Source: Rhizobium bangladeshense
Lineage (GTDB): Bacteria > Pseudomonadota > Alphaproteobacteria > Rhizobiales > Rhizobiaceae
Direction: 5' to 3'
Assembly: GCF_017357245.1 (NCBI RefSeq)
Contig: NZ_CP071612.1
Coordinates: 3,560,001 to 3,624,000, forward strand
DNA length: 64,000 bases
Below are positions 12,321 through 31,421 of this stretch, in pieces (positions within the stretch are counted from its first letter, which is position 1; every line of letters starts with the position of its first letter). The notes beneath the pieces are model-generated. The model was not told the DNA's origin. It did no database searches and was given only the letters and a program-made list of their open reading frames with translations. The position numbers and the translations under genes are program-made.

Positions 12321-12321
12321 G

Positions 12322-13344
12322 ATGAAAAGAGCTCTCATGGCCGCGGCGGCGCTGACCGCCCTATCACCTCTTGGCGCAGCTGCCGCGGAACGAACGCTGA
12401 CCATCTCCGTCTATGCCTTCGCGCAGGACGATTTCAAGGCATTGGTCTACGACCCCTTCGAAGCCCAATGCGGCTGCAAGCTGGTTGTCGAGACTGGCAA
12501 CAGCGTAGAGCGCCTGGCCAAAATGGAGGCCAACAAGGCCAATCCCGTCGTCGATCTCGCCGCCGTTTCGATGGCGGATGCGCTCGCCGCATCGCGCGCG
12601 GGCCTGATCGACAAGATCGATACCGCGAAGCTTACCAATTTCTCCAAGCTTTACGACGTCGCCAAGGATCCGAACGGCGACGGCATGAGCGTCGGCTATA
12701 CCTTCTACGCCACCTCGATCGCCTATCGCTCCGACAAGATGAAGATCGAATCCTGGGCCGATCTCCTGAAGCCGGAATATGTGAGCCATGTCGCCTTCCC
12801 GAATGTCACGACCAACCAGGGCCCGCCGGCGCTCCACATGCTTGGCCTGGCGCTCGGCAAGGATACTCCCGACCTGAAGGGACCGATCGAGGCGCTCGGC
12901 GAGAAAAAGGACGACATCGTCACCTTCTACGAAAAATCCTCGCAGCTCGTTCAGCTGATGCAGCAGGAGGAGATCTGGGCAGCACCGATCGGCCGTTTTT
13001 CCTGGGCTGGCTTCACCAAACTCGACGTCCCGGTCGCATGGGCGACGCCCCGGGAAGGCCAGACCGGCGGCATGAACGTGCTGGTACTGACCAAGGGTTC
13101 CAAGAATCAAGATCTCGCCTTGCAGTTCATGGATTTCTGGCTCTCGACCGACACTCAGACCAAGCTCGCCGAGAAGCTGATCGACAGCCCCGCCAATAGC
13201 GAGGTCAAGCTTTCTGAAGCGGCCGCCAACAACCTCACCTATGGCGAGGAAACAGCCAAGAGCCTCAAGCTCATCCCGTCAGCCATTGCCCTCGATAATC
13301 GCGCCGGCTGGCTGAAGACGTGGAACGACAAGGTCGGCCAATAG
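12322..13344 (+). CDS. ABC transporter substrate-binding protein (purine/nucleoside operon)
   Basis: A 340-residue periplasmic protein of the spermidine/putrescine-iron binding class. The signal peptide spans about residues 1-22 (MKRALMAAAALTALSPLGAAAA). The body shows the alternating lobes of this family (ISVYAFAQDDFKALVYDPF; YTFYATSIAYRSDKMKI). ATG 12322 directly follows the LacI stop. Linked permeases, ATPase, nucleoside hydrolase and adenine deaminase argue that it binds a purine nucleoside or base rather than a polyamine; this is inference from context. Confidence 0.88.
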   Translation: MKRALMAAAALTALSPLGAAAAERTLTISVYAFAQDDFKALVYDPFEAQCGCKLVVETGNSVERLAKMEANKANPVVDLAAVSMADALAASRAGLIDKIDTAKLTNFSKLYDVAKDPNGDGMSVGYTFYATSIAYRSDKMKIESWADLLKPEYVSHVAFPNVTTNQGPPALHMLGLALGKDTPDLKGPIEALGEKKDDIVTFYEKSSQLVQLMQQEEIWAAPIGRFSWAGFTKLDVPVAWATPREGQTGGMNVLVLTKGSKNQDLALQFMDFWLSTDTQTKLAEKLIDSPANSEVKLSEAAANNLTYGEETAKSLKLIPSAIALDNRAGWLKTWNDKVGQ

Positions 13345-16031: not shown

Positions 16032-16952
16032 ATGGGCGTGTGGATCGATACCGACTTGGGCTTCGATGACATCGCCGCCATTCTAGTGGTGGTGCAGTCG
16101 GAATATGAGATCGACGGCATCTCACTGGTCTTCGGCAACACGCCGCTGCCGCAAGTGAGGATGAATGCCGCCGGCGCCGCTAGCGCCTTCGGCTGGACGT
16201 TTCCCATCCACACCGGCCGTGCTGCGCCCGTTCTCGGCAAGCTCGAAACCGCCCAGGCGATCCTCGGCGAAACCGGCATCCCGACAGCAGGCAAGAGCCT
16301 GCCGGATGCCCCTGCCCTTGCCGACAGCGATGCCTTCACCGCGCTCTGCCGCTGGCTCGAAGGCAGCGGGCCACACCGCATCCTGGCGCTCGGACCCCTC
16401 ACCAATATCGCCGCCTTGGCCCTTGCGCGCCCCGATCTTGCCGCCCGCATCACCGACCTCGTCTGGATGGGCGGCGGCATCACGTCAGGCAATCATACCG
16501 CCTCCGCCGAATTCAACGCGCTTGCCGATCCCGAGGCGCTCGCGATCGTCATCGCCCATGGCCTGCCGCTGCGGATGGTGGATCTCGACCTCTGCCGCCG
16601 GGTGCTGGCGCGACCTGAGGATACCGAGTCGGTGCGCAATGCCGGCGGCGCCAATGCCGAGCTGATCGCCGACCTGTTCGCCGGTTACATAAATATCGGC
16701 ACCAGCCGCGGCCGTCCCGGCATGGCGATCTATGATCCCTCCGCCGCCGTCGCCTTCGTCGCCCCTGATGTCGTAATTTTCCGATCCGCGCGCGTCGACG
16801 TCGAACTGCAGGGCGCCTTCACCCGTGGCCGCACAGTCGTCGAAACCCGCGCCACGCATGCGACCTTCAACGCGCAATTCGCCGCCGACATCGATTCGGA
16901 CGAGGCGCGCGCCATCATTCTCGGCGCCCTGATCAACGAGGCCCGAAAATGA
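16032..16952 (+). CDS. Inosine-uridine-type nucleoside hydrolase family protein with Tyr at the usual His site
   Basis: A 306-residue enzyme predicted to hydrolyse N-ribosides to base and ribose. The Ca-binding N-terminal signature is WIDTDLGFDD (residues 4-13), with Leu in place of the usual Pro. The C-terminal active-site segment reads IYDPSAAVAF: Tyr234 occupies the place where group I enzymes have the leaving-group-activating His (HDP). TRGRTVVETR matches the family end motif. It lies 4 bp after the ATPase gene and overlaps adenine deaminase by 4 nt, so the likely flow is nucleoside uptake, hydrolysis, then adenine deamination. Confidence 0.87.
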   Translation: MGVWIDTDLGFDDIAAILVVVQSEYEIDGISLVFGNTPLPQVRMNAAGAASAFGWTFPIHTGRAAPVLGKLETAQAILGETGIPTAGKSLPDAPALADSDAFTALCRWLEGSGPHRILALGPLTNIAALALARPDLAARITDLVWMGGGITSGNHTASAEFNALADPEALAIVIAHGLPLRMVDLDLCRRVLARPEDTESVRNAGGANAELIADLFAGYINIGTSRGRPGMAIYDPSAAVAFVAPDVVIFRSARVDVELQGAFTRGRTVVETRATHATFNAQFAADIDSDEARAIILGALINEARK

Positions 16953-18736
16953 ACACCATCCCTCGTCAGGAACCCTTCGACCTCAACGATCCCGGCTTGC
17001 GTGCCCGCGCCGTTGCTGCCGCGCGCGGCGATGCTCCCTTCGACCTGGTCATCACTGGCGGTCGGCTGCTCGATGCGGTGACCGGCCTGATCCGCGAGGC
17101 CGATATCGGTCTCGTCGGCGCACTGATCGCAAGCGTTCATGCCCCGGCAAGCCGAGCGGATGCCGTCGAAATCGTCGATGCGACTGGCGGCATCCTGACA
17201 CCGGGACTGATCGATACGCACATGCATGTCGAAAGCTCGATGGTGACGCCCGGCGAATATGCAAGCGCCGTGCTGCCCCGCGGTGTCACGACGGTCGTCT
17301 GGGATCCGCACGAATTCGGCAACGTTCACGGCCTCGACGGCGTGCGCTGGGCGATCGAAGCGGCGCACGCCCTGCCGCTGCGCATGATCCTGCTCGCCCC
17401 CTCCTGCGTGCCGTCGGCACCGGGCCTGGAACTTGCCGGCGCCGATTTCGATGCCACCATCATCGCCGAAATGCTGCGTTCGCCTGCGGTGGGCGGCGTT
17501 GCCGAAGTCATGAACATGCGCGGCGTCATCGACGGCGACCCGCGCATGAGTGCCATCGTCAATGCCGGCCTTGTCTCCGGCAAGCTCGTCTGCGGCCATG
17601 CCCGCGGCCTCGCAGGCGCCGACCTCAACGCCTTCATGGCAGCCGGCGTCACCTCCGACCACGAACTCACCTCCGGCGCCGATCTCGCCGCCAAGCTTTC
17701 TGCCGGCCTGACGATCGAGCTGCGCGGCTCTCACGACCATCTCTTGCAGGAATTCGTCGAGGTCCTGAACGGTCTCGGCCACCTGCCCCCGACCGTCACG
17801 CTCTGCACCGACGACGTCTTTCCCGATGAACTCTATGAAGGCGGCGGCCTCGACGACGTCATCCGCCGGCTCGTGCGCTACGGCATGAAACCGGAATGGG
17901 CGCTGCGTGCCGCGACCTTCAACGCCGCGCAGCGGCTGAAACGCTCCGATCTCGGCCTTGTCGCCGCCGGTCGCCGGGCCGATCTCGTTCTCTTCGAAAA
18001 CCTTACGGAATTCCGTGCGCGGCTGGTCATATCGGGCGGCCGCCTCGTCGCCCGCAATGGCTGCATGGAGGCGGCCATCCAGCCGCTCGATACGGCGCCG
18101 CTCGTCAATTCCGTCAAGCTGCCGCCGCTGACGGAGAATGATTTCCGCATCCCGGCCAAGGGCGCGCGCGTCCGCGTCGCTACCATCGACCGACCACGCT
18201 TCACTCAATGGGGCGAAGCCGAAACCGAAATCCGAGACGGCTTCGTCGTACCGCCGGTCGGCAGTGCGATGATCGCGGTCACCCATCGCCACGGCAAGAC
18301 CGACAGCGCCCCGCGGATCGGCTTCCTCACCGGCTGGGGCGAGTGGCGAGGCGCCTTCTGCACCACCGTCTCGCATGACAGCCACAACCTCACCGTCTTC
18401 GGCGGCAATGTGCGCGACATGGCGCTCGCCGCCAGCGCCGTCATAGCAGCCGGCGGCGGTATGGCGGTCGCCAAGGACGGCGCAATCGAAGCGATCCTGC
18501 CGCTGCCGCTTTCCGGCTTGGTAACCGACGCGCCCCTAAGGGACACAGCCCTCGCCTTCTCCGATATCCGCAAGGCCATGGACAAGATCGTTGACTGGAA
18601 ACCGCCCTACCGCGTCTTCAAAGCCTGCTTCGGGGCAACACTCGCCTGCAATGCCGGTCCGCACCAGACGGACCGAGGGATCGCCGACGTGGCGACAGGG
18701 AAGGTACTGGACAGCCCGGTGCTGGCGATTTTGTAA
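16949..18736 (+). CDS. ade: Adenine deaminase
   Basis: A 595-residue amidohydrolase-superfamily enzyme converting adenine to hypoxanthine and ammonia. The metal-binding motif HMHVESS is at about residues 91-97, followed by VWDPHEFGNVHG, CGHARGL and CTDDVFPDEL, which hold further metal ligands and the catalytic region. The C-terminal adenine-deaminase domain is complete. ATG overlaps the nucleoside hydrolase stop (ATGA). Last gene of the LacI-headed purine operon. Confidence 0.94.
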   Translation: MNTIPRQEPFDLNDPGLRARAVAAARGDAPFDLVITGGRLLDAVTGLIREADIGLVGALIASVHAPASRADAVEIVDATGGILTPGLIDTHMHVESSMVTPGEYASAVLPRGVTTVVWDPHEFGNVHGLDGVRWAIEAAHALPLRMILLAPSCVPSAPGLELAGADFDATIIAEMLRSPAVGGVAEVMNMRGVIDGDPRMSAIVNAGLVSGKLVCGHARGLAGADLNAFMAAGVTSDHELTSGADLAAKLSAGLTIELRGSHDHLLQEFVEVLNGLGHLPPTVTLCTDDVFPDELYEGGGLDDVIRRLVRYGMKPEWALRAATFNAAQRLKRSDLGLVAAGRRADLVLFENLTEFRARLVISGGRLVARNGCMEAAIQPLDTAPLVNSVKLPPLTENDFRIPAKGARVRVATIDRPRFTQWGEAETEIRDGFVVPPVGSAMIAVTHRHGKTDSAPRIGFLTGWGEWRGAFCTTVSHDSHNLTVFGGNVRDMALAASAVIAAGGGMAVAKDGAIEAILPLPLSGLVTDAPLRDTALAFSDIRKAMDKIVDWKPPYRVFKACFGATLACNAGPHQTDRGIADVATGKVLDSPVLAIL

Positions 18737-19256
18737 GCTGGGACGCACACACCAGAAGCGAGGGGGGTGCCGTGCACCCCCTCATCCCCTGGGGGCGTGC
18801 GCCGCCGTGCAGAACGCCGCGCCGACGCGCCAACCGGCCCGTCGCCTCCTCACGAGGCCTAACCATCGCCGGTCGGTGAGTGTCGTACGATCATCTCTCG
18901 TGCAGCACTGCCGTTCCGACTTAAGCCGCTCTAGTTGTCAGCTTTCAGCAAGATGCTCAGCGGCTTCGTCCAGCCCTCCTCGTCGCTATCAAAAGTCAGT
19001 ACGGCGGCGGCGCAAGATTCCCGCGGTAGATGCTAGTCGCGTGCTATCCACGATCTGCCGAGCTGCTGCAGACCAGCCGGGAACATCCGCATTAAGAGGG
19101 AGTTAGCAAGCGTCGGAGACAGACTGAACATTACGGACCACTCCCCGACGTGAACGACAAATCGATAGTGAGTGACGAGACCGCAGCGATTACGCAGAGC
19201 CAGAGCATATGCCGCCACCGCTCATGAGGCTCCGGGGACATTGAGAGGGCGTCAAA
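18737..19256. other. 520-bp intergenic region without a supportable gene
   Basis: No frame here has protein-like composition with a ribosome site. A hairpin at about 18760-18783 (GAGGGGGGTGC against GCACCCCCTC with one bulge, CGT loop) lies 24 bp after the ade stop but has no T tract, so it is a weak terminator or repeat at best. The stretch 18890-19240 shows frequent stops in all frames and may be a decayed gene. The ribosome site GAGAGGG just upstream of 19257 belongs to the next gene. Confidence 0.5.
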
Positions 19257-20426
19257 ATGGACAATGATGCCACCATTGGGCCGCGATGGAGGCTGCTCAA
19301 GCTGGCCGCGACCGCAGCACTTGCCCTCATGTCCTTGCGGATCATCAAGGGAGAAATTCCGCGTGTCGTTTCAGATCATGGCCTGTGGGATTTCGGCGCC
19401 TTCGTCGCGTCGGGACGCGCAGCCGCTGCAGGACTGGATCCCTATGGCATCTACCCGCCGCTCACGCCGCATGTCGTCTTTCCTGGATTCGAATCCTGGA
19501 ATCCAAACCTCAATCCCCCGATTTCGGCACTCCTGTTCCAGACCTTAGATATATTCGAGCCGGTGCAATCACTTCGCATCTGGTGGATGATTTCTATCGC
19601 CAGCTACGTCGCTGCGGTTGTCTTGCTGCTGCGACGCTATAGCGGCGGCTTGGAGCTCCCGCTGCTGGCGATCTGGGCGTTTGCACTGGCTGGCTTTTGG
19701 GACACGCTCTATCTTGGCCAAATCTATATGCCGTTTGTGCTACTCGCGGTAGCCGGCTGGCTTCGATTGGAAAAGGGTGATGGCATCGTCGCCGGCATCA
19801 TGATCGGTTTGCTGATCTCGATGAAGCCCAATTTTGCAGTGTGGCCGGTGCTGCTCTTTCTTGCCGGCCACCGCCTTCCGGGTCTGGTGTCGGTGGCTAC
19901 CGCGGCGGTTATAGCCACGATCCCGCTGGTCGTCTTCGGCCCGCAGATCTACGTCGATTGGCTGCGCCTCGTCGCAACAGACGGCGAACGGGCTGTTTTT
20001 CTAACCAACGCGTCGTTTGCAGGCCTTGCGGCCCGCGCCGGTGTTCCGGCCGCAGGCACGGTCATTGCCGCACTATTGTTGCTTGGACTAGCAGGTTGGG
20101 CCTTCTTTCGTCATCCGCCGGTCATCGTAGTGAGTGGTTTCGCGCTGCTGGCGTCCCTGCTGGCTTCGCCTCTCGGATGGATCCACTACACGCTCTTCCT
20201 GCTACCCGTGCTGTTGCACCATTGGCAGCGTCCGTGGGCATGGCTGGCAGCAGCAGCCCTAGTGATCCCGGTCCCTGTCATACTCGGTTACTTCGGAGCT
20301 CCCCGTTTGAATCAGCTCACGGCAGGTTCCATTTACGCCTGGGCGCTGGTGCTGATGCTGATCGGCCTTATCACCGCGGAGCTGAAACAACAGGCTGCGC
20401 CGACTCAGGAAGCCTTTCTGCGATAA
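19257..20426 (+). CDS. GT87-type (DUF2029) multi-pass polyprenyl-phosphate-sugar glycosyltransferase
   Basis: A 389-residue integral membrane protein with roughly 10-11 hydrophobic helices. The first outer loop has WDFGAFVASGRAAAAGLDPY, with an Asp at the GT-C catalytic position, and LNPPISALLF, both typical of the GT87 family. Mycobacterial GT87 members include the arabinofuranosyltransferase AftC and mannosyltransferase PimE, which use lipid-phosphate sugars outside the membrane. It converges on and overlaps the arabinose-donor operon by 22 nt at the 3' ends. A role using that operon's product is inferred. GAGAGGG precedes ATG 19257. Confidence 0.8.
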   Translation: MDNDATIGPRWRLLKLAATAALALMSLRIIKGEIPRVVSDHGLWDFGAFVASGRAAAAGLDPYGIYPPLTPHVVFPGFESWNPNLNPPISALLFQTLDIFEPVQSLRIWWMISIASYVAAVVLLLRRYSGGLELPLLAIWAFALAGFWDTLYLGQIYMPFVLLAVAGWLRLEKGDGIVAGIMIGLLISMKPNFAVWPVLLFLAGHRLPGLVSVATAAVIATIPLVVFGPQIYVDWLRLVATDGERAVFLTNASFAGLAARAGVPAAGTVIAALLLLGLAGWAFFRHPPVIVVSGFALLASLLASPLGWIHYTLFLLPVLLHHWQRPWAWLAAAALVIPVPVILGYFGAPRLNQLTAGSIYAWALVLMLIGLITAELKQQAAPTQEAFLR

Positions 20427-21988
20427 ATGCGCCAATCGGCCGTTTGCCGCACCAGCGCATAGTGGCGGGCGATATAGTGGGCATAAAGGTCGCGCAGCCC
20501 GTTGCCCGTCCAGATCTCGATCGGCCATTTCGGATCGAGAATAAGGTCAACGTCGGCGAACATCTCTTCCGCGGGCGGATGATCATCCGGTCCAAGAGTT
20601 CGCCCCCAATGATACCAGACGCTGTCGCCCACGGGCGGCGTCAGCCCCAGGCCGGCAGAGAAGGGATTGACGAAATCGAGTACCGCGACGCGCTCGCCAG
20701 CGGACATCAGCTGCGACAGGGCGGCCGAAGCGTCAGCCAATGTCCTGTTGTATCCCTCGAAATATTCGTATTGGCCGGCGCTCCAAATCTCAACGAGCCT
20801 GATCTCGGAAAACGCCGGCAGCGGGATCGGTTTGCCTCGGCCGCCGGCAGTGTAGTAGGCATGAATTGCCAGCGATGCAGCGTTGCCGAGGGCGGCGGGC
20901 AATAACAGGAACGCCAGGAGTAGCGGCAGAGCGAACCGCGCCGTCCCGTATCGGGAGAGCAGCTTGGCGCGAAAGTGGCTTTCCGTGATGATGACTGCGC
21001 CTGCGCCAAGTGTCAGTATACCAACGGCCTGGAAATTCTGCCCGATCAAGAGAATTCCGGTCGTGCCGCAGAAGGCAACGAAGAGCAGATGTCGGTAACC
21101 TGGCGACAGGCTGAGAACGATGAGCGCGACCGCAAGATAGACAAGAAGGTCGGCGAGATTGTTCCGTAGCAAATGACCGAGCGCGGTCAACGCCAGCAGG
21201 CCACCGCTGTTTTTGGCCGAAAGGCCCAGGTCGGCAAGATAGTTGAACCCGCCGCGCCAGATGATTTCAATGGCGATACTACTGACGGCGATCATCCCGA
21301 GCGCCAAACTCACCCAACCGATCTGGCGACGATCGAAAAGCATGAACAACAGAAAGGCAAGCCCCACGACGCCATAGGTGATCTTGGTGTAGAGCATCAG
21401 CAACACAAGGAAACTGGCGCATGCGGCATCGACGGCCCTGCTATTGCCGGCTGCCGGCAACCGGGGCAGATACATCACCAGCAGAAAGCCGAGCGACGCC
21501 CAGCCAATCCGGTTATAGAACATGGCAAATGTCAGCTCTCCTATCCGCTCGCCTGGATTTGCGGGAGCCGCAACTATCAGGAGCAGGAAGATCGCAAGCG
21601 GCAGCCCGAAGACCTTATGCATCCGGCTGCCCACGATTTCCGCGGCAATAGCTGCAAGCAGGAAGACCACTATCGCCATTCCAGCCGGCATCGCGCCGCC
21701 CATACTGCCCGACAAGCCATAGCCGGCAGCGGGGATATAGAATGTCAACGGCCCGAGCGACGAATGGAAATCCACATTCGGCACCTGGCCAAGCACGATG
21801 CGATGAGCACCATCCAGGAAAACGAAGAGATCGTTGACGTACTTGGTCGTGACCGTTCGGCCGGGCAGAGCGAGAAGGCCGGCGAGAATGACGCCCGCGC
21901 CAATGATGACGGCCCGCGACCAACTCAACCGTGACATCGTGGGCGACGCGCCGTCTCCCACCACCACCGACCTTTCCGTCTCAATCAC
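20405..21988 (-). CDS. Multi-pass membrane protein, putative GT-C glycosyltransferase (copy 2)
   Basis: A 527-residue protein with about 10 helices and a C-terminal soluble tail. The first periplasmic loop reads FLDGAHRIVLGQVPNVDFHS, an acidic-residue-bearing loop like the catalytic loop of GT-C enzymes. It is a clear paralogue of the upstream gene: both share GAHRI..GQVPN.DFH..LGPL..Y.PAAGY.LSG and the DFVNPFSAGLG..PPVGD..W.HW segment near the C terminus. The chosen start is GTG 21988, which overlaps the upstream stop as GTGA and has GAGG 5 nt upstream; 22036 and ATG 21937 are alternatives. Last gene of the arabinose-donor operon. Confidence 0.78.
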   Translation of the reverse strand: MIETERSVVVGDGASPTMSRLSWSRAVIIGAGVILAGLLALPGRTVTTKYVNDLFVFLDGAHRIVLGQVPNVDFHSSLGPLTFYIPAAGYGLSGSMGGAMPAGMAIVVFLLAAIAAEIVGSRMHKVFGLPLAIFLLLIVAAPANPGERIGELTFAMFYNRIGWASLGFLLVMYLPRLPAAGNSRAVDAACASFLVLLMLYTKITYGVVGLAFLLFMLFDRRQIGWVSLALGMIAVSSIAIEIIWRGGFNYLADLGLSAKNSGGLLALTALGHLLRNNLADLLVYLAVALIVLSLSPGYRHLLFVAFCGTTGILLIGQNFQAVGILTLGAGAVIITESHFRAKLLSRYGTARFALPLLLAFLLLPAALGNAASLAIHAYYTAGGRGKPIPLPAFSEIRLVEIWSAGQYEYFEGYNRTLADASAALSQLMSAGERVAVLDFVNPFSAGLGLTPPVGDSVWYHWGRTLGPDDHPPAEEMFADVDLILDPKWPIEIWTGNGLRDLYAHYIARHYALVRQTADWRIYRRKAS

Positions 21989-23622
21989 TGCACCTCGCTT
22001 TGCGCCTTTACCTGCCGCCACTGGTAGACCGTCCACTCCGATGTCTTCTGAACGACCTCGAACCGTGCCGAAAGAAACGGGCCGTACAGCTCCTGCAGCG
22101 GCAGGCTGTTGATTCCTGTTTTAGGCACCATGACGATCTTTACATCTGCAAAGAGCACTTCCGGTGGGATATAGGCTTTCTCGTTGATATTGCGGTTCCA
22201 GTGAAACCAGGCGGTGTCGCCGGCAGGCGGGCGAATGCCGAGCCCCGCTGAAAAAGGGTTGACGAAATCGAGCACGAAAACGCGCTCCGGCGGTACCGGC
22301 AATGCCTGCAGCAGCGCTCCCCCGGTTACGATGTCGTCGAGATAGCGCCTTATGAAGTCAGGCTCGCCGCCAGGCGGATCGATCTCACGAACATCGTCGA
22401 AATGCGGCAGCCCGAGAGATTGCCCAGCTTTGTCCGCCGCAAGCGATGTATGCAGAATGAGGGCCGCGGCGTGATGTACGATCGGCGGTGACAGGAATAA
22501 GGCCGCGAGCACCGAAAGAGCGCCGGCAGGAAGAGCTAAACCCCCTGCCCTTCTCCCTTCATCGCCTTGCTGACGCCAGGCGGCTCTCTGCGCCAGAACG
22601 ACCGCGCCGCAGTAGAGCGTGATGATGCCCCAACTGTGGGCGTTCTGATTTATGATCGCCAGGCCGCTGCCTATGCAGAACCCAGAGAAGAGAAGATCTC
22701 GGGAGCTGCGGGTTTGCCAGATGACGACCAAAACGAAGGCGGCGAATACGACGAGGTCGGAGAGGTTCTCACGCAGGTTCTTCAGGATGCTGCCGACATC
22801 GTGGCCGCCGCTGACACGCGCCGCCGCCCGCAGATCCTCTATATGCTGAGCGGTTCCGCGCCAGACGAACTCGATGGCAATCATGGCCAGTCCCGTCAGC
22901 AGCAGGGCAGTCACGGTCCAGCGGCGCTGCTGCCGGTCCAAGAGGATGACGACGAGGAGAAAGGCGGTTCCGGCAAGCCCGTAGGTCGCCTTGGTGTAGA
23001 ATGAGACGAGCAGAAGAAAGACGGCGGCAAGAGCATCGGCTGCATCGTTTCGCCCGCGCTGGAGCTGCGGCGTCAGATACATCACCAGCAGCAGGCCGAG
23101 CGCGACCCAGCCGATGCGGTTATAGAACATCGCGAAGGAAGGATACCAGATGGAACTGCCGAGATTGATCGGCGCCGCGAGGATGAGAATGAGGAATATG
23201 CCGAGCGCGGCCGCCAATGACGGACTGAGACGCGACACGAGGATCCGGATCATCGCCGGGATGAAGGCGACGACAACGATAGCCATTCCAAGCGGTATGG
23301 CAGCGCCGAAATTCCCCGACAGCAGGTATCCCGCAGCCGGAAGATAAAAGACGAGCGGCCCGAGCGCCGTGTGAAAATCGCGGTTCGGCACCTGACCGAA
23401 CGTGATGCGGTGCGCGCCGTCGATAAAGATCAGCACGTCATTGATAAAGGCGGCGTTGATGGTCCTGCCGGGTAGGGCAAGCATGACGGCGCAGGCCAAT
23501 GCTGAGAAGATGATCGCGCCTTCTGACGACAGCACCCGCCTTATCGTTGCCGCCGGCCTCTTGCTGGCGCCTGCTCCCTTTACGATGGCCGCGAAAGCGG
23601 CGTGGTTGCCTGGTTCCGTCAC
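21985..23622 (-). CDS. Multi-pass membrane protein, putative GT-C glycosyltransferase (copy 1)
   Basis: A 545-residue membrane protein with about 10-11 helices, paralogous to the next gene. The first outer loop has FIDGAHRITFGQVPNRDFHT; the C-terminal soluble part has FVLDFVNPFSAGLGIRPP. The start chosen is GTG 23622, which forms a GTGA overlap with the dprE2-like stop and has AAGAGG 8 nt upstream; an ATG at 23685 would give 21 more residues of poor composition. It occupies the place of aftA (Rv3792) in the mycobacterial dprE1-dprE2-aftA order. Use of lipid-linked arabinose as donor is inferred. Confidence 0.78.
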   Translation of the reverse strand: MTEPGNHAAFAAIVKGAGASKRPAATIRRVLSSEGAIIFSALACAVMLALPGRTINAAFINDVLIFIDGAHRITFGQVPNRDFHTALGPLVFYLPAAGYLLSGNFGAAIPLGMAIVVVAFIPAMIRILVSRLSPSLAAALGIFLILILAAPINLGSSIWYPSFAMFYNRIGWVALGLLLVMYLTPQLQRGRNDAADALAAVFLLLVSFYTKATYGLAGTAFLLVVILLDRQQRRWTVTALLLTGLAMIAIEFVWRGTAQHIEDLRAAARVSGGHDVGSILKNLRENLSDLVVFAAFVLVVIWQTRSSRDLLFSGFCIGSGLAIINQNAHSWGIITLYCGAVVLAQRAAWRQQGDEGRRAGGLALPAGALSVLAALFLSPPIVHHAAALILHTSLAADKAGQSLGLPHFDDVREIDPPGGEPDFIRRYLDDIVTGGALLQALPVPPERVFVLDFVNPFSAGLGIRPPAGDTAWFHWNRNINEKAYIPPEVLFADVKIVMVPKTGINSLPLQELYGPFLSARFEVVQKTSEWTVYQWRQVKAQSEVQ

Positions 23623-24368
23623 AGCCGCAACCTCTTGAAGATTGGCTCGGGGATTGACCGGATCACCGTCATGAGCGGTCGCCATATCGGTCTGACGTAG
23701 ACGACGTCGCCGCCCCTGCCGCCCTCGGCGACAGCAAATATCCTTTGCGCGACCTCCCGAGGTTCGGCTGTGAGAAGCGGCGGTAGCTTCATCGCGTTCG
23801 TCATGCGTGTCCGAACGAAACCCGGCTTCACGGTCAGCACGCGCACCCCGGAGCCGGACAGCCTGTTCCTCAGCCCGGACAAGAAGGCGGTCAACCCGGC
23901 TTTGGCGGCGCCATAGACATAGTTGGACGCGCGCCCGCGATCGCCGGCGACGGAGCTTATGCCGACAATGGTACCTGATCCTCTCGCCGCGAAACTTTCC
24001 GCCAGAAGACCAAGAAGCAACGCCGGTCCTTCGAAGTTCGTCCGCATGATCATGGCGGCGTGCTCGAGTTCCCGTTCGGCGCGAGACTGCTCGCCCAATT
24101 CGCCAACGACGCAGACCGCTGTGTCGGGCAGAGGCGAAACGACGCCCACGAAATCTTCGAAGCGGCTTGTAGTGAGGATATCGAGTTCGTGAACCAGGAC
24201 GTTAGCGCCAGTCCGCGCGCTGATGTCGTCGGCTTCGCGTTGCACGGCGGAGCGATTTCGTCCGGCGAGAAGCACGTCCCATCCCGCTTCGGCATAGATC
24301 AGCGCCGTCGCACGGCCAATATCCGACGTCGCGCCTATCAGGAGCAGTGTCTTGCCGATCCCCTTCAT
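23619..24368 (-). CDS. DprE2-like short-chain dehydrogenase (polyprenylphospho-2-ketoribose reductase)
   Basis: A 249-residue SDR. The nucleotide site is LIGATSDIGRA (residues 10-20), the catalytic residues are Ser139 (GISSVAG) and Tyr152/Lys156 (YGAAK). In mycobacteria DprE2 reduces decaprenylphospho-2-keto-ribose to decaprenylphospho-D-arabinose with NADH. The ATG overlaps the dprE1-like stop as ATGA and the stop overlaps the GT-C gene as GTGA, so the proteins are made together. The adjacent DprE1 homologue makes this assignment much stronger than the SDR fold alone would. Confidence 0.87.
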   Translation of the reverse strand: MKGIGKTLLLIGATSDIGRATALIYAEAGWDVLLAGRNRSAVQREADDISARTGANVLVHELDILTTSRFEDFVGVVSPLPDTAVCVVGELGEQSRAERELEHAAMIMRTNFEGPALLLGLLAESFAARGSGTIVGISSVAGDRGRASNYVYGAAKAGLTAFLSGLRNRLSGSGVRVLTVKPGFVRTRMTNAMKLPPLLTAEPREVAQRIFAVAEGGRGGDVVYVRPIWRPLMTVIRSIPEPIFKRLRL

Positions 24369-25687
24369 ATGCCGAGCCTCTTTGCCAAGCGGGAATTAAA
24401 GTGCCGATCGGCGCCCGTTACTTTTCGCAGCTCTTTGAACGCGGCCAACCGAGAGTAACCGGCCTCGAATGTTTGTCGCGACTGTCGTGCATCCTTGGCG
24501 AGATAGAGCCGCCCTCCTGCTTTGACAACCAGCTCGTCGATTTCGTCGAGCAGCCGGAACACCTCCTGCGTGACGGGAAGGTCGAGTGCGAGCGTGTAGC
24601 CCGGCGAAGGAAAGGACAGCAGCCCGTTCCCGCCCCCCAGCTTCTTCAGCACAGCAAGAAAGGAGCCTTTTCCCGAACGCGCGAAGCGGTCGAGAATGCC
24701 GCTCAGGACCGGCAGAGCGTCCTCGGCAGGGACCACGCACTGATGCTGCAGAAAGCCCCGCCTCCCGTAAAGCCGGTTCCATTCAAGGATGCCGTCGAGT
24801 GGAAAGAAGTATCTATCCCAGTGGACCAGCGACGACTTGGCCGCCTTTCGCGCTCCCGCCCTGAAATAGAGCTCGTTGAAGGCTGCTACGCTAGTTTTGT
24901 TGAGCAGCCATTGTGGCAGATCGAACGGCAGTGAAAACCTCCCCGCGTTTTTCGCTGCAAAGCGATCGGCGCCGGGCATGCCGGCGAGCTGGTCCAGCGT
25001 CGCGTGCTCACCGGCAAAGATCAGCGAGCGTCCAAGGGAAGCGCCTTGGGAAAGGGTATCGATCCAGGCGACCGAATAAGTGGCATCCTCGGTCTGCTGC
25101 AACGCCTTTAACGCCTCGCCAAGGTTTTCGGCCACGATCGTCTCTTGCGCGATCCAGCCGGATTCGATCGGCCTCAAGCGGAACGTCGCTTCCTCGACGA
25201 TCCCGGTCATGCCCATACCACCGACGGTCGCGAAAAAAAGCTCGGGGTTATGCGTGCGGCTACAGGTGAGGACCTCTCCGCCGGCGCCCACCAGCTTGAA
25301 CTCGATGACATGGTCACCGAACCCGCCGTCGCGATGATGGTTCTTGCCGTGAACATCAGAGGCGATCATTCCGCCGACGGTGACAAATTTCGTGCCCGGT
25401 ACCACAGGCGGAAAGTAGCCTCTCGGGACAAACGAGCGCAGAATATCCGAGAGCATGACGCCCGCTTCCACGGTCAGCGTCGCATTGGCGGGATCGAACC
25501 TCCGCATCCGGCTCAGCCCACGGCACATCAAGGTGGAGTGTTCGCCGATCGCCGCGTCACCGTATGAGCGCCCATTTCCGCGCCCGATCAATCCCGTCCG
25601 GGAGGCCACGGTACCTGCGAGCGCTGCCGGCAGCCAACAGTCGATCGCCTGGCTCTCATGGCGTGGATAACGTCCCCAGCCCTCCAT
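24365..25687 (-). CDS. DprE1-like FAD-dependent polyprenylphospho-ribose 2'-oxidase
   Basis: A 440-residue flavoprotein; M. tuberculosis DprE1 has 461. It would oxidise the 2'-OH of polyprenylphospho-ribose, the first half of epimerisation to arabinose. The FAD/PP-loop motif GRGNGRSYGD lies at residues 35-44 and VPGTKFVTVGGMIASDVHGK follows. The C-terminal GGRLYLAKD contains Lys398, matching catalytic Lys418 of Mtb. Ala367 (GYTLALDLP) stands where Mtb has Cys387 (GWNICVDFP); the 31-residue distance between the two sites is the same in both. ATG 25687 is chosen with GAGGAGG 12 nt upstream; the longer open frame overlaps the GtrA gene. Confidence 0.9.
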   Translation of the reverse strand: MEGWGRYPRHESQAIDCWLPAALAGTVASRTGLIGRGNGRSYGDAAIGEHSTLMCRGLSRMRRFDPANATLTVEAGVMLSDILRSFVPRGYFPPVVPGTKFVTVGGMIASDVHGKNHHRDGGFGDHVIEFKLVGAGGEVLTCSRTHNPELFFATVGGMGMTGIVEEATFRLRPIESGWIAQETIVAENLGEALKALQQTEDATYSVAWIDTLSQGASLGRSLIFAGEHATLDQLAGMPGADRFAAKNAGRFSLPFDLPQWLLNKTSVAAFNELYFRAGARKAAKSSLVHWDRYFFPLDGILEWNRLYGRRGFLQHQCVVPAEDALPVLSGILDRFARSGKGSFLAVLKKLGGGNGLLSFPSPGYTLALDLPVTQEVFRLLDEIDELVVKAGGRLYLAKDARQSRQTFEAGYSRLAAFKELRKVTGADRHFNSRLAKRLGI

Positions 25688-25694
25688 GCGCTTG

Positions 25695-26126
25695 TTACGC
25701 CTCCTCTGGTTTGAAGACGAATTTCCGGTCCAGTGTGTATTTTGAGATATAGCCGATCGCCAAACCGAGCGCTCCGCCGGTGTATTTTGCAAGCTCCGTC
25801 TTCCAGATCGTCCAAAAAGCAATTTCAAAGCCCCAGAATATGAGCGTCGTCAGGACACTGAACACGCCGTAAAGCACCACCTTCAGCATCTCGTCGCCGT
25901 ACGACGTGTAGCCGTCGAAGAAGATCCACCGTTTGTCGAGGAGGTATTTCAAGCCGAAGCCGGCGGCGGTACCTGCGAGGATCGATGGCATGAGGCTCGG
26001 CGACGGCGCCAGCTCCATGACAGCAGCCTGGACCGCAAAGTTGGCGGCGGTGGAGAGCATGGCGAAGGCGAAGTAGCGGGCTGCTAGGCCCGCAGAAGTG
26101 CTTCGCTCTGAAGACTGACGAGCCAT
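25695..26126 (-). CDS. GtrA-family small membrane protein, probable lipid-linked sugar flippase
   Basis: A 143-residue protein with four helices, a GtrA-fold. The first helix region ARYFAFAMLSTAANFAVQAA and the last loop KYTLDRKFVFK are typical. GtrA proteins are associated with moving polyprenyl-phosphate sugars across the inner membrane; the mycobacterial homologue Rv3789 lies directly before dprE1-dprE2, as here. It starts 9 bp after the UbiA-HAD stop and ends 7 bp before the dprE1-like start. Confidence 0.85.
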   Translation of the reverse strand: MARQSSERSTSAGLAARYFAFAMLSTAANFAVQAAVMELAPSPSLMPSILAGTAAGFGLKYLLDKRWIFFDGYTSYGDEMLKVVLYGVFSVLTTLIFWGFEIAFWTIWKTELAKYTGGALGLAIGYISKYTLDRKFVFKPEEA

Positions 26127-26135
26127 TCGGCCACC

Positions 26136-27677
26136 TCACATCGCGGCAACGACAAGTACGCCGGCGGCGCCGAGCGTGGCGAGGCTGACCTTGTCCCGGA
26201 TCGCGAAGACTACTGGATCGTCATGCATCTGACCCCGGTGGGCGAGCATGAGGATGCGGGCGATCCAGCAGGCAAGGATCGGTCCTGCCAGCCATAACAT
26301 TGCTGGCCGGGCGTAGATGTCTTGGGCGCTGTCGCTTGCAGCATAGAGGGCAAATAACGTGAGCGCGTTCATTCCCGCTCCAGCTGCCAGGGCACCCACC
26401 ATACCGATATCCGCCTTCCTATAGTCGCGGCTCTTGGAGTCCGGCAGGTGCGCGGCGCGGCGCGAGATGAGCTCGGTGTATCGCTTCACCAAAGCGAGCG
26501 AGAGGAACCAGCTCATCATGAAGGCAAGCAGCCAGGGAGATGGCCACACCGAGACGGCGGCAGCGCCGCCAACCACCCGCGTGGTGTAAAGAGAGGCGAG
26601 AGCCACCACGTCCAGGATCATCTTCCGCTTGAGGAAGAAAGAGTAGGCGGTGGTCAAGGCGAAATATCCCGCGAGTACGAGCACGAAGACTGGTGACACC
26701 ATGGCCGCGATCGTAAGCGACAGCAAAAGCAGGATCGGGATTGCCAAAAGGGCGTGCGACAGCGGGATCTCGCCACAGGCAAGGGGTCGGCGGCATTTGG
26801 TTTTATGACGCCGGTCGTCCTGCAGGTCGACCAGGTCGTTCAGGAGATAAACGCCCGAGGCACAAAGCGAAAAAGCCACGAAAGCCAGGGCTGCATTCGC
26901 AAGGCTATGTAGCGTAAGGAGCTGATTTGTCAGTAGCGGGATAAAGACCAACCCGTTCTTGACGTATTGATGCACCCGCAACGAACGCGCCCAAATCCGC
27001 CATGTCGGTTTGTCGTGGCTAAGATGCTCGACGTTGTCGCACTGGCGCGAAAGCTCTCGCGCAACCGCCGCCGATGTCCTTATGGCATAAGCCTTTGCGG
27101 CATGGCGCCAGACTGACAAGTCGGCCGGATCATTTCCGATATAGTCGAAGCCACCCTCCCCGAAGGCGGCGACGAGCTTGGCCGCCTTCGCCTCGGCGAC
27201 ACAGTTCATCGTTTCGTTCGTTGCAAACCAGCCGGTGAAGAGGCCGAGGTGGTTGGCAACCGCGCAAACCAGCCGCTCGTGGGTTGCAGAAGCGAGATAA
27301 ACTGAACGCCCCTCCTCCCGTGCGCCCTTGATGACCTTCAGCACTTCCGCGTCATAAGGAAGGATAGCCGGATCGAAATCCGCTGGTTGCGAAAGGCGGT
27401 GCTTCAGACACGCCTTTCCAACGGACAGCGACCTGATGAAATCGACGATCGAATGAGGCCGACGGCTGAGCTCCGAGAAGGCCGTCTCGATCAGGAGGTC
27501 CGATCGCACCAGGGTGCCGTCGAGATCAACTACTAACGGGCGGGGCGACAGCGGTTTTTGCAGGTCCGGTGGACTATCCACCGGCAATGCCGCGGGCTCA
27601 GGTTGAGGCCACTCGTCCTCCTCGGCTCTCGGCAGAAAATCTCTTCGTAGCTGGAATTCATGATGCAGCTCGTTCAA
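26136..27677 (-). CDS. HAD phosphatase-UbiA fusion, putative polyprenyl-phosphate phosphoribosyltransferase
   Basis: A 513-residue two-domain protein. The N-terminal HAD domain (about 45-215) has motif I VVDLDGTLVRSD (Asp51, Asp53), motif II YLASATHE (Ser130) and motif IV IGNDPADL (Asp183). The C-terminal UbiA membrane domain (about 220-513) has NDLVDLQDD (Asn280, Asp281, Asp284) and DVVALASLYTTR (Asp356-Arg367), the two Mg/prenyl-phosphate motifs. It resembles mycobacterial Rv3806c, which adds phosphoribose from PRPP to decaprenyl phosphate; the HAD half could remove the 5-phosphate, a step done there by a separate protein. The start is TTG 27677, 5 nt after AAGGGAG; the open frame continues upstream without protein-like composition, and ATG 27743 is an alternative. 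Confidence 0.85.
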   Translation of the reverse strand: MNELHHEFQLRRDFLPRAEEDEWPQPEPAALPVDSPPDLQKPLSPRPLVVDLDGTLVRSDLLIETAFSELSRRPHSIVDFIRSLSVGKACLKHRLSQPADFDPAILPYDAEVLKVIKGAREEGRSVYLASATHERLVCAVANHLGLFTGWFATNETMNCVAEAKAAKLVAAFGEGGFDYIGNDPADLSVWRHAAKAYAIRTSAAVARELSRQCDNVEHLSHDKPTWRIWARSLRVHQYVKNGLVFIPLLTNQLLTLHSLANAALAFVAFSLCASGVYLLNDLVDLQDDRRHKTKCRRPLACGEIPLSHALLAIPILLLLSLTIAAMVSPVFVLVLAGYFALTTAYSFFLKRKMILDVVALASLYTTRVVGGAAAVSVWPSPWLLAFMMSWFLSLALVKRYTELISRRAAHLPDSKSRDYRKADIGMVGALAAGAGMNALTLFALYAASDSAQDIYARPAMLWLAGPILACWIARILMLAHRGQMHDDPVVFAIRDKVSLATLGAAGVLVVAAM

Positions 27678-27980
27678 AGGATCTCCCTTATGCTTTGAAA
27701 CCGTGAGAGCCCGCCGAACCACGGCTAAGCGGTTTGGTTCCATCATCAAAATGGGTGAGTTGCTGGCGCCTGGGAGAGGCTTATCATTGGTTGATTTTTT
27801 CGCCCTCGATGCAAGACGCTCCCGGAATAATTGCATCCTCAGCCAAGTAGGGCATAGCCTGTCGTGTTCGCGTCCGACAAGTTTTCGAGCTTTGCGCAAA
27901 ATCGGATGACGCATCGAAGGCGGGAACAAACCGGAGATGCGCCGGTTCGAGGACAGTATAGATTGCTGTGATCGAGTGTT
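27678..27980. other. Leader region of the arabinose-donor operon
   Basis: About 300 bp between the TTG start of the UbiA fusion (minus) and a small plus-strand frame. On the minus strand, TTGTCG (27875-27880) and TATGCC (27851-27856) with an 18-bp spacer are a weak sigma70 candidate; the transcript would then have a ~170-nt leader. No clear operator or hairpin stands out. Confidence 0.3.
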
Positions 27981-28175
27981 ATGATGAATCTTGCTCTGCT
28001 TTTCGGTGCGTTGACATTGACATGTTGGATGCTGGGAGGAGCTGTTGCAGTGCTGGGCACGGCCGAGCACTCTCGTCATCACCGGCAACAGATGCGCGGA
28101 GTCATATCGCTGGGTTTTAACCTCTTGGGTATGGCATGTGCGGTCGCGATGATGGCGATCGTGATCGCCGCATGA
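27981..28175 (+). CDS. Small hypothetical two-helix membrane protein
   Basis: A possible 64-residue protein beginning MMNLALLFGALTLTCWM. Two hydrophobic segments (about 3-27 and 42-63) are separated by a polar His/Arg-rich loop (GTAEHSRHHRQQMR), a plausible hairpin membrane protein. The ribosome site is weak (only TCGAG nearby). It is transcribed divergently from the arabinose-donor operon. I do not recognise a family; it could also be chance coding. Confidence 0.35.
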   Translation: MMNLALLFGALTLTCWMLGGAVAVLGTAEHSRHHRQQMRGVISLGFNLLGMACAVAMMAIVIAA

Positions 28176-28317
28176 TCGATATGCTGAATGACCTCCGAAC
28201 TGCTCAGGGAAGGCGCATACCGCCACAACGACATCAGCAAGATCGCCTGTCACCCGGCAAACGCCTTGTTTTCGATGACTGCGGCGCAACGCGCCGAGTG
28301 GTTATGACAACCAAGAT

Positions 28318-29262
28318 TCACCGCCGGCCGGGAGCCGAATGACGGCTTTCTTCCATTCGCCGAAGACGATTATGAATTGCAATGGCCGCTATTTCGCCAT
28401 GGGCCATTGACACGCCGAGCTGGTTGAGACCGGTGACAACGTCCCCGACCGCATATAGTCCCGGGACCCGCGTGGCCTGATGTGCATCAACCCTTATCCG
28501 CATCTCGTCCTCGAGATCAGCGCCCAGCTGCTCCGCCAGCTGTGAGCGCGGGCGAATTCCCAATGCCGAATAGAGGACCACCCCTTCCAAGGTTGCTGAG
28601 GCCTCCATGACAAGGTCAACGGCACCATTTTCGCGACGCGAGCAGTGTATCAACTTCTCGCAGCGTATGGCGACTCCAACATCAACCAGCCGGGCCATGG
28701 TTGCTTCTGTAACGTTCATCCTTTCGCCCAGGGTCGCAATGGTGATCTTGTTCGTGAACGACCCCAGGAAACGCGCCTCGGAGGCCGCGTGCTCCGTCGC
28801 ACCAATGATCACCACCGGTCGACCAGCGATTTCGTAACCATCGCAAATCGGGCAGAAGCGAAGATGTCCCGATCGGGTAAGATCGTTAGCTTGGTCGATG
28901 GGCGGCAGCGTGTCCTCAACGCCGGTCGCAAGGACGACATTTTCAGCCATCATCGAGCGGCCGGCGAATTCGACGATGAAGCCTGAATTGGCGCTCCGCC
29001 GCACCTGCGATACCGCCTCGGCCACGATCTCGATATCGAGGTTCCGCAGTTGCTTTCTCATGCGCCTGAATAGCTCGGCTCCTGCGATCCCTTCGGGAAA
29101 GGCTGGATGATTGCGAGAGAGCGGAATAAGCAGTGCGCGACTGCAACCCGAGTCTAAGACGACAACCCGCCGATTAAGCCTTTTCAGATACAGAGCGGCC
29201 GTCATCCCACCCGGCCCGGCGCCTATAACGAGGGCATCCAACTCTACGAATCCGCTTCTCAT
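28318..29262 (-). CDS. Thioredoxin-reductase-like FAD/NAD(P)-disulfide oxidoreductase
   Basis: A 314-residue flavoprotein of thioredoxin reductase size. The FAD motif is [15 protein letters not shown] near residues 12-26; the redox Cys pair is Cys137/Cys140 in CPICDG; the NADPH motif [14 protein letters not shown] follows; the C-terminal FAD motif is GLYAVGDVV. The ATG at 29262 lies after GGAGG (11 nt); the open frame upstream to 29547 is not protein-like. It is not next to a thioredoxin, so the partner is unknown; some homologues act on other dithiols. Divergent from an SLC13 carrier. Confidence 0.85.
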
Positions 29263-29503
29263 TGATTCGGCATCCTCCAAAGCTCGGCACCCCAACCACA
29301 ACATGGCTCCACAGTTCCAGAAGCTTTCTCGCGAGACCTCAAGAGGTGGTGATGGTCGGGTTTCATGCGGCTTTTCTGTCGGCGCTGCATCTCGAGGTGC
29401 GCCTGTTCTGTGCTGCCAAGGAACTTGCGCTACGTTACGGCGTTTTTGAACATCTTCCTCCGCTTGGTTGTCGGCGACATCCCAGCCTCTTTCCCAGGTC
29501 CGC

Positions 29504-31276
29504 ATGACGACACAGCAGATAATCGCATTTTCGGTCATCGCGCTCATGATGGCGGTCTTTATATGGGATCGCTTCCGCTATGATGTTGTCGCGTGTTGCG
29601 CGCTGGTGTTGGCGGTCGCGACTGGCATCGTGCCACCGGAAAAAGCGTTTTCCGGATTTTCGGACGACATTGTCGTCATCGTTGGCAGCGCGCTGATCGT
29701 CAGCGCGGGCGTGGCTCGGTCGGGCATAGTCGATTCGGCCATCAAGAGATTCTTCCCGAACCTGAACACGCTTTACGCGCAGCTCGCGCTCTTGATGATA
29801 GCAGTGGCGATCCTTTCTGCTTTCATCAAAAATATCGGCGCGCTCGCGATCATGATGCCTGTCGCCTTTCAGTTCGCAAAAAAATCCGGTGCCTCTCCAT
29901 CGAAATACCTGATGCCGATGTCGTTTGCTGCTTTGCTTGGCGGACTTATGACGCAGATCGGCACGTCGCCCAATATCGTCGTGTCGCGGCTGCGGGAGGA
30001 GATGACGGGAGCCTCCTTCACCATGTTCGACTTCACACCTGTAGGCGGTATTCTAACGGTTGTCGGCATCGCCTTTCTCTTGTTTTTCCATTGGTTGGTG
30101 CCAAGCCGCACCAAGCAGAACAGCTCGATCGAAGATGCAATAGAGATCAAGAACTACACGAGCGAAGTCGCAATCACGCACCAGTCGACGCTGCTAGAGC
30201 AGGCACTGAGTGACCTCCTGAAGCTCGGCGATGGTGAGGTCATAGCCACGGCCGTGCTGCGCGGCGGCACCCGGATGGCTGCATTCCCCGATCTCACACT
30301 CCGAAATGACGATATCGTCATGCTGGAAGGTCCCTCGGCAGCGATAGACCGCATCGTCTCCCAAGGGAAACTGAAGCTCTCCGGCAAGCCTCTTCCGCAA
30401 GATGGCCAGCGGGAAGCGGACATCATTTCGCTCGAGGCAATCGTCAGTCAGGAATCGTCACTCGCTGGCCTTTCGGCAAAAGAACTGGCGCTTTCCTATA
30501 CGCGCGGGGTCAACCTTCTGGCGATCAGCCGGCGCGGTGAACGCCTCAAGGAACGGCTGGGAAGCTTGACCCTGAGCACGGGCGATGTGCTCCTCTTGCA
30601 AGGCAGCCGGGCAAGCCTGACTGCTCTTCTGCAGGATTTCGGCCTTCTGCCACTCGCCCAGCGAGAAGTGCTGCTCGGCACCCGCCGCCGCGCCTTCGTT
30701 CCGCTTCTCATCCTGGCGCTCGCCATGGCGGCAACTGCCGTCGGCCTCGCGCCGGTTCCGGTGGCTTTCTTCACAGCCGCCCTCGGCATGGTTGTTTTCC
30801 GGGCTATCCCACTCGCCGATATCTATAAATCGGTAGATGGCCCGATCCTGATGATGCTCGCAGCCCTCATTCCTGTCTCGGATTCGTTGCGCACCTCCGG
30901 CGGCAGCGATTTGATCGCCGGCTGGTTGGGTGAGGTGGCAATGAATCTGCCGGCATGGGGTGCGCTTGGCCTGATTTTGCTAACGGCCATGGCCGTCACA
31001 CCCTTCCTCAACAACGCCGCCACGGTTCTCGTGATGGCGCCGATCGCCGCCAGCTTTGCAACGAATCTAGGCTTCAGACCGGAAGCCTTCCTGATGGCGG
31101 TAGCGGTTGGCGCGGGTTGCGACTTCCTCACGCCTGTCGGCCATCAATGCAACACGCTCGTCTTCGGTCCTGGCGGTTACAAGTTTTCCGACTATCCGCG
31201 TCTCGGCCTGCCGCTGTCGGCGTTGATCATTCTCGTTAGCGTGCCGGCGCTGCTGTTTGTATGGCCGGTCAACTAG
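29504..31276 (+). CDS. SLC13/DASS-type anion permease with two TrkA-C domains (second copy)
   Basis: A 590-residue carrier of the same layout as the gene at 1512-3254: N-terminal transport half with [20 protein letters not shown] and [10 protein letters not shown], two cytoplasmic TrkA-C domains at about 215-290 and 305-390, and a C-terminal half with [20 protein letters not shown] 29504 begins directly before the first helix; the upstream in-frame start 29468 adds a polar tail. The ribosome site is weak. Substrate is unknown, probably an inorganic or dicarboxylic anion. The two copies are clearly diverged in sequence. Confidence 0.88.
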
Positions 31277-31421
31277 CGGCAGTTGATTCACCCTGCATCC
31301 CACTTCTCTGCTGAAGCGAAAAGCCACGAGCTTCCGCCAATCGGGACGAGCATGCGAACGACGTCTCACTTCCGATAAGTCGTGCCAATCGAACGTGATT
31401 GCCACAGCCGCAAATCAGCGA

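What the first reader, a model, noticed from the sequence alone, without database searches (positions are those of the whole stretch)
20405..27677. Complete candidate pathway for lipid-linked D-arabinofuranose in a rhizobium
Seen: six minus-strand genes joined by 4-nt overlaps or gaps under 10 bp encode HAD-UbiA, GtrA, DprE1, DprE2 and two multi-pass GT-C-like proteins. Known: in mycobacteria Rv3806c (UbiA), Rv3789 (GtrA), DprE1/DprE2 and Aft/Emb enzymes make and use decaprenyl-phospho-D-arabinose; the order GtrA-dprE1-dprE2-transferase equals Rv3789-Rv3792. Azorhizobium NoeC and neighbours, of the same families, arabinosylate Nod factors. Inferred: this cluster, away from nod genes, makes a polyprenyl-phospho-arabinose and adds D-Araf to an unknown surface or secreted glycan.
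Basis: partly seen in the sequence, partly recalled or inferred. Interest (0 to 1): 0.85.

Follow-up and report, generated by a model that had tools for sequence, protein, structure and literature searches.

The report
Acquired D-arabinose glycosylation island in Rhizobium
A Rhizobium chromosome carries an acquired block of genes that very probably makes a lipid-carried form of the rare sugar D-arabinose and attaches it to something on the cell surface, using a donor pathway known from mycobacteria but its own set of transferases, whose target is unknown.

Summary
Observation confirmed. Six minus-strand genes (HAD-UbiA, GtrA, DprE1, DprE2, two multi-pass proteins) are joined by gaps of 9 and 7 bp and three 4-nt overlaps. 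The UbiA half is closest to decaprenyl-phosphate phosphoribosyltransferase and keeps its active-site motif. DprE1/DprE2 are clear homologues. The last two proteins have no Pfam match but a GT-C fold; AftA, protein mannosyltransferases and ArnT tie as best structural matches. All genes are under purifying selection. A polyprenyl-phospho-D-arabinofuranose pathway with periplasmic transfer is the best reading. The core is a known kind: nod-linked noeCNHOP operons and the pentofuranose systems of Kelly et al. 2024. New here: (i) a convergent GT87 gene co-travels with the cassette; (ii) it sits in a 12.66-kb insertion between core genes and lies on plasmids in related strains; (iii) Paracoccus and two other Rhizobiaceae genomes carry three GT-C genes forming three orthologous slots, the first missing from Rhizobium; (iv) the transferases show no sequence kinship to NoeP or AftA. 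Several old transferases per donor suggest a multi-residue D-Araf structure. The acceptor is unknown. New variant of a known kind.

The parts
26136..27677 (-). HAD-UbiA fusion (513 aa): N-terminal phosphoribose phosphatase, C-terminal polyprenyl-phosphate phosphoribosyltransferase
   Evidence: PRK08238 637 bits; 8j8j E 2e-24; N280-D281-D284-D288 motif, HAD DLDGT at 51-55
25695..26126 (-). GtrA-family membrane protein (143 aa), proposed lipid-sugar flippase
   Evidence: gtrA_1 164 bits, cut-off 50
24365..25687 (-). DprE1-like FAD oxidase (440 aa)
   Evidence: NF053785 409.8 bits (below its cut-off of 500), 4aut E 3.9e-83
23619..24368 (-). DprE2-like SDR reductase (249 aa)
   Evidence: PRK07102 362 bits (cut-off 267), NF053786 185 bits (below its cut-off of 250), 32% to actinobacterial DprE2
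21985..23622 (-). GT-C transferase 1 (slot 2 of three)
20405..21988 (-). GT-C transferase 2 (slot 3), 42% identical to transferase 1
   Evidence: not folded itself
19257..20426 (+). Convergent GT87-family (PF09594) glycosyltransferase, overlapping the 3' end of GT-C 2 by 22 bp; co-travels with the cassette in part of the carriers
   Evidence: 77 bits, cut-off 25
18782..31445 (.). Insertion (about 12.66 kb) absent from three homologous sites compared; also holds a thioredoxin-reductase-like gene and a CitMHS transporter gene
   Evidence: (three empty sites)
28318..29547 (-). Thioredoxin-reductase-like flavoprotein inside the insertion, role in the pathway doubtful
29468..31276 (+). CitMHS/TrkA_C transporter inside the insertion, probably unrelated
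16949..18736 (+). Left flank: adenine deaminase, core Rhizobium gene
   Evidence: 147 of 148 genomes
31422..32612 (-). Right flank: M20 peptidase, next to TctA (32706-34214)

Best explanation
The island makes polyprenyl-phosphate-D-arabinofuranose and uses it in the periplasm. Step 1: the UbiA domain transfers 5-phosphoribose from PRPP to polyprenyl phosphate (homology and motif shown; activity inferred). Step 2: the fused HAD domain removes the 5-phosphate (inferred from its motif and from the Kelly ORF15 precedent). Step 3: DprE1 oxidises and DprE2 reduces C2, giving the D-arabino sugar (homology shown). Step 4: GtrA helps bring the lipid-sugar to the periplasmic face (inferred). Step 5: two GT-C enzymes, in some strains with the convergent GT87 enzyme, add D-Araf to an envelope glycan (fold shown for one; acceptor unknown). 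Most likely acceptor: a surface polysaccharide such as LPS or EPS. The block is a horizontally moved accessory cassette, which would vary the cell surface between strains.
For: UbiA is nearest to decaprenyl-phosphate phosphoribosyltransferase models and its solved structure; the motif residues studied by Kelly et al. (N247, D248, D251, D255, R366, E369) line up. DprE1 aligns over its length with conserved SYGD, HGKNHH, K and AKD motifs. DprE2 has GATSDIG, the Ser and YxxxK. GT-C fold: rows 1-48 of the 50 shown by VIA-align are GT-C enzymes or, by my reading of title and length, GT-C subunits of complexes. Operon junctions. All 17 Rhizobium genomes (of 148) with GT-C 1, the own one included, have HAD-UbiA at 65% identity or more within 6 kb. 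Order UbiA-GtrA-DprE1-DprE2-GT-C in Paracoccus and Tateyamaria; the same core in two Ruegeria plasmids, Salipiger and, with one extra gene inside, Cereibacter. Purifying selection. Genetic proof for the nod-linked version of the core.
Against: DprE1 and DprE2 fall below NCBIfam equivalog cut-offs, though 0 of 385 genomes of the class pass the DprE1 cut-off. GtrA flippase function is unproven, also in the paper read. A distant GT-C relative sits beside HAD-UbiA without dprE genes (G581, L117), so the wider GT-C family is not tied to arabinose. Five further distant GT-C relatives lie in stretches where no cassette was found (G213, G333; G617, G944, G1120). The core without GtrA is commoner than with it in the class survey (GtrA seen in 8 of 46 loci, a lower bound). 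None of the literature searches listed a paper reporting D-arabinose in a non-Nod rhizobial glycan.
Confidence: 0.8

Rival explanations
1. The donor pathway is as described, but the acceptor is a protein (as pilin in Pseudomonas) or a membrane lipid rather than a polysaccharide.
For: No O-antigen or EPS genes are annotated within 12 kb of the cassette in Paracoccus, Rhizobium K102 and WSM1325; a D-Araf pilin system is cited in Kelly et al..
Against: No pilin, flagellin or lipid gene is annotated beside the cassette in those three records either; in Tateyamaria and two Ruegeria plasmids relatives of the core lie near polysaccharide genes.
Confidence: 0.25
2. It arabinosylates Nod factors like noeCNHOP.
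For: Same core order UbiA-GtrA-DprE1-DprE2-transferase.
Against: NodA lies on contig C4, the cassette on C1. No sequence kinship of the GT-Cs to the nod-linked transferase. The nod-linked DprE1 genes fall in another clade of support 100/100. The cassette occurs in Paracoccus pAK3, and GT-C homologues occur in Devosia and Microvirga.
Confidence: 0.03
3. The sugar transferred is ribofuranose or another pentofuranose, DprE1/E2 being inactive or acting on something else.
For: Kelly et al. show Ribf and Xylf versions, and a GT-C that accepts both; DprE1/E2 score below curated cut-offs; HAD-UbiA beside a distant GT-C relative without dprE in G581.
Against: DprE1/E2 are kept in the 10 loci and in G819, G1090 and Paracoccus, with dN/dS 0.13-0.17 within Rhizobium; catalytic motifs are intact.
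Confidence: 0.07
4. The cassette is a decaying remnant without function.
For: GT87 is truncated or fragmentary in 4 and not found in 3 of the 10 Rhizobium/Neorhizobium loci, and GT-C 2 is broken over frames in L010; GT-C slot 1 is missing from the Rhizobium loci seen.
Against: All seven genes are open in the window and under purifying selection.
Confidence: 0.04

Closest known systems
noeCNHOP Nod-factor arabinosylation operon (Azorhizobium noeCHOP; Agrobacterium/Rhizobium IRBG74)
   Same: Core order UbiA-GtrA-DprE1-DprE2 then transferase; UbiA 39%, DprE1 47%, DprE2 51% identity
   Different: No HAD match in the nod-linked UbiA of S. alkalisoli; single 401-aa transferase without detectable similarity to the GT-Cs here; linked to nodABC; DprE1 in another clade
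Three-component extracytoplasmic pentofuranose systems (Kelly et al. 2024, PMC11127046)
   Same: HAD-PRP fused N-terminally to a UbiA PPPRS, lipid donor, GT-C transferase; DprE1/E2 in the Araf versions, per the paper
   Different: GtrA instead of a MATE flippase; two to three GT-C paralogues plus GT87; no glycan locus around it. The paper mentions elaborate systems with multiple candidate epimerases or GT-Cs in Xanthomonas and Bacillus; 'rhizobi' and 'paracoccus' occur nowhere in its main text; its supplement was not read
Mycobacterial decaprenyl-phospho-arabinose pathway (Rv3806c, DprE1/E2, Rv3789, AftA; names from PMC11127046 and recalled)
   Same: Same three donor enzymes; GtrA-dprE1-dprE2-transferase order as in Rhodococcus; GT-C fold
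   Different: Phosphatase is a fused HAD domain; the transferases show no detectable sequence similarity to a Rhodococcus AftA; the Cys aligned with the benzothiazinone target is Ala here (target residue recalled)

Membership tests
Three-component pentofuranose system (Kelly 2024) | UbiA-type polyprenyl phosphoribosyltransferase with N-D-x2-D-x3-D and RxxE motifs | tested here: met
   alignment, positions
Three-component pentofuranose system (Kelly 2024) | HAD-family phosphoribose phosphatase domain with nucleophile Asp | tested here: met
   (PF12710 33.3 bits, cut-off 27), DLDGT motif; activity not tested
Three-component pentofuranose system (Kelly 2024) | MATE-family flippase | tested here: not met
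   GtrA family instead
Three-component pentofuranose system (Kelly 2024) | GT-C transferase | tested here: met
   fold only, GT-C 1 only; membership in GT136 not tested
Three-component pentofuranose system (Kelly 2024) | Pentofuranose side chain on a glycan | not testable with these tools
   needs sugar analysis
Mycobacterial DPA pathway | DprE1 and DprE2 at the NCBIfam equivalog cut-off | tested here: not met
   409.8 of 500 and 185 of 250 bits; 0 of 385 class genomes pass for DprE1
Mycobacterial DPA pathway | AftA-type transferase by sequence | tested here: not met
   hhalign probability 0.3% against Rhodococcus AftA; similar fold
noeCNHOP operon | NoeP-type transferase | tested here: not met
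   hhalign against the S. alkalisoli nod-linked transferase, probability 0.1%
noeCNHOP operon | Linkage to nod genes | tested here: not met
   nodA on contig C4
GT87 | PF09594 above gathering score | tested here: met
   77 bits, cut-off 25

The most novel reading that the evidence does not exclude
The cassette builds a short D-arabinofuranose oligomer, a Gram-negative 'mini-arabinan', on an envelope glycan: three old, non-interchangeable GT-C slots plus a GT87 enzyme act in series from one lipid donor, as priming, extending and capping enzymes do in mycobacteria, from a GT-C family with no detectable sequence kinship to AftA. Its movement between chromosome and plasmids varies the surface of rhizobia and other alphaproteobacteria.
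Probability: 0.3. Interest if true: 0.8.

Novelty: new variant of a known kind. Interest (0 to 1): 0.5.

Why it matters
It gives a defined, deletable gene set that predicts D-arabinofuranose outside the Nod factor in rhizobia; the searches made here listed no paper reporting that (listed papers were not read except PMC2443382 in passages). It offers GT-C enzymes without a Pfam match for arabinosyltransferase work. It supplies a natural DprE1 with Ala where the benzothiazinone-target Cys aligns. It also makes a testable case for acquired surface decoration in root symbionts.

Tried and rejected
Rejected: Nod-factor arabinosylation; sequence membership with AftA or the nod-linked transferase. 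Led nowhere: the GT-C profile against solved structures by sequence (none at E 0.1); GT87 against solved structures (none at E 0.01); a hairpin at the GT-C 2/GT87 overlap (z +1.39, so no better than shuffles); repeats marking the island ends (none convincing); the upstream promoter scan (one weak site against 0.5 expected). Literature: 10 searches; most subscription papers are not held. The GC3 comparison (mean 0.70 in 7 insert genes, 0.76 in 43 others, p 0.0004) is weak support only, because my gene caller used GC3 to choose genes and left out two genes of the insert. The wide surveys with the GT-C profile found few carriers, own genome included (3 of 385 at E 1e-10; 5 of 317 and 7 of 297 at E 1e-20), several of them distant relatives without the cassette.

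Full report
1. What is there. The window is from the 4.37-Mb contig C1 of a 6.35-Mb Rhizobium genome; the nearest named proteins are from R. lentis, 98%. The HAD-UbiA start (TTG 27677) gives 513 aa, the length of the annotated gene in Rhizobium sp. K102. A seventh gene, GT87, runs towards them and overlaps the last one by 22 bp.

2. Donor enzymes. The UbiA half scores 140, 137 and 105 bits against the three decaprenyl-phosphate phosphoribosyltransferase models and 47.2 or less against other UbiA models, apart from PRK08238 at 637 bits. Its best solved relative is 8j8j, E 2e-24. In that alignment the NDxxDxxxD and RxxE positions, which Kelly et al. mutated in ORF15, are conserved (the paper found R366A and E369A still active). 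The HAD domain passes its Pfam cut-off and has DLDGT. DprE1 matches DprE1 chain 4aut at 3.9e-83 with its His/Lys motifs kept; the position aligned with the Cys of the VCVDFP stretch is Ala (that this Cys is the benzothiazinone target is recalled). DprE2 is 32% identical to an actinobacterial DprE2. Both fall below NCBIfam equivalog cut-offs, but none of 385 genomes sampled in the class passes for DprE1, while the Corynebacterium control does. GtrA passes its family cut-off; against one of the two Rhodococcus GtrA proteins it has only a 15-residue match at E 0.005, the other was not compared.

4. Three slots. In Paracoccus pAK3 and in two Rhizobiaceae genomes (G819, G1090) three GT-C genes follow dprE2. 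The tree of 20 rows groups first with first, second with second and third with third gene (supports 99/97, 93/96, 100/99; the tool flagged long branches at the outgroup). So the tandem array predates these lineages, and the Rhizobium loci lack slot 1. G1090 and Paracoccus also have the convergent GT87; in the G819 stretch none was found. Of the 10 loci, GT87 is full-length in 3, truncated or fragmentary in 4 and not found in 3. Across public proteins, 21 contig lengths are shared between the 120 listed GT-C 1 relatives and 119 of the 120 listed GT87 relatives, against a mean of 0.65 (maximum 3) after shifting the lengths; 10 are contigs under 60 kb.

5. An island. Adenine deaminase (147 of 148 Rhizobium genomes at E <= 1e-100) and TctA (112 of 148) flank it. 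In three sites that I fetched for comparison (G003, G109, G079) the window sequences up to 18781/18787 and from 31446/31449 lie 20 to 156 bp apart, so about 12.66 kb is inserted here. GT-C 1 occurs in 17 of 148 genomes of the genus, own included. In 7 of the 17 the cluster is in this gap (9.4-14.8 kb between the flanking genes); in 9 the gap is 1.3-5.4 kb and the cluster lies on another contig; in 1 the flanks are on different contigs (read by eye). In PLSDB, 28 records hold at least 80% of the cluster in one place, all of them Rhizobium plasmids. Pfam scans of the nine larger genes of the insert showed no integrase or transposase; small frames were not scanned, so the transfer mechanism is unknown.

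6. Spread of the core. Of 385 genomes sampled in the class, 47 have DprE1 (E <= 1e-60). In the 46 loci other than the window, DprE2 lies within 5 kb in 42, UbiA in 36 and GtrA in 8; among the 36 UbiA hits 16 reach into the HAD domain (window queries at E <= 1e-3, so lower bounds; some loci are cut by contig ends). The own genome has 3 UbiA genes in 6.35 Mb, so this is far above chance. A DprE1 tree of 68 rows puts the window with Rhizobium, G819, G1090, Paracoccus, G508, Tateyamaria and G314 (100/99), and the nod-linked genes in a different clade (100/100).

7. Selection. dN/dS against three Rhizobium loci is 0.12-0.21 for the genes present (GT87 0.12 in two loci, absent in the third); against G819, G1090 and Paracoccus it is 0.09-0.39, with synonymous changes near saturation and one value undefined.

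8. Literature seen. PMC11127046: abstract, passages and sections 7 and 12. PMC5080398: passages only: noeP deletion removes arabinosylation; noeN deletion reduces it. By gene order noeN is the GtrA gene of that operon, which would fit a helper flippase better than the phosphatase the authors proposed; this mapping is mine. PMC2443382: passages. Harvey et al. 2011 on Pseudomonas pilin D-Araf was not held and is cited only through PMC11127046. Other papers were seen as listings only.

9. Verdict. The donor pathway is very likely real; the kind is known. What is new is the combination: a free-standing moved cassette of the GtrA type, with two to three old GT-C paralogues that match no Pfam family plus GT87, acceptor unknown. 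Interest 0.5.

Noticed in passing
L010 (R. laguerreae FB206) about 11506-13025: GT-C 2 is split over frames and so probably broken, while the other cassette genes match over their length.
   Followed up: no
L004, L005, L008, L011: GT87 is truncated or fragmentary next to an otherwise complete cassette, suggesting repeated loss.
   Followed up: partly
window 27680-28289: The read-through region upstream of HAD-UbiA matches places elsewhere in several Rhizobium genomes, with stops inside; perhaps a dispersed repeat or gene remnant.
   Followed up: no
L055, L108-L113: A second Rhizobium cluster type: UbiA-DprE1-DprE2-epimerase-FAD oxidoreductase-GtrA-large multi-pass protein, near pseG in R. tumorigenes (names from L055, layout by size in the others, not every member seen in each); perhaps a further-modified pentofuranose.
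   Followed up: no
L105, L106: HAD-UbiA followed by a 356-aa protein and a large multi-pass protein, without DprE1/E2 hits; resembles the described xylofuranose-type layout.
   Followed up: no
L117 (G581): HAD-UbiA next to a distant GT-C relative without dprE hits: the GT-C family may also serve ribofuranose.
   Followed up: no
L050 8579-9001: noeN of IRBG74 is, by gene order, a GtrA-family gene; its deletion only reduces Nod-factor arabinosylation, which fits a flippase.
   Followed up: partly
window 24365-25687: DprE1 has Ala where the Cys attacked by benzothiazinones (recalled) aligns.
   Followed up: no
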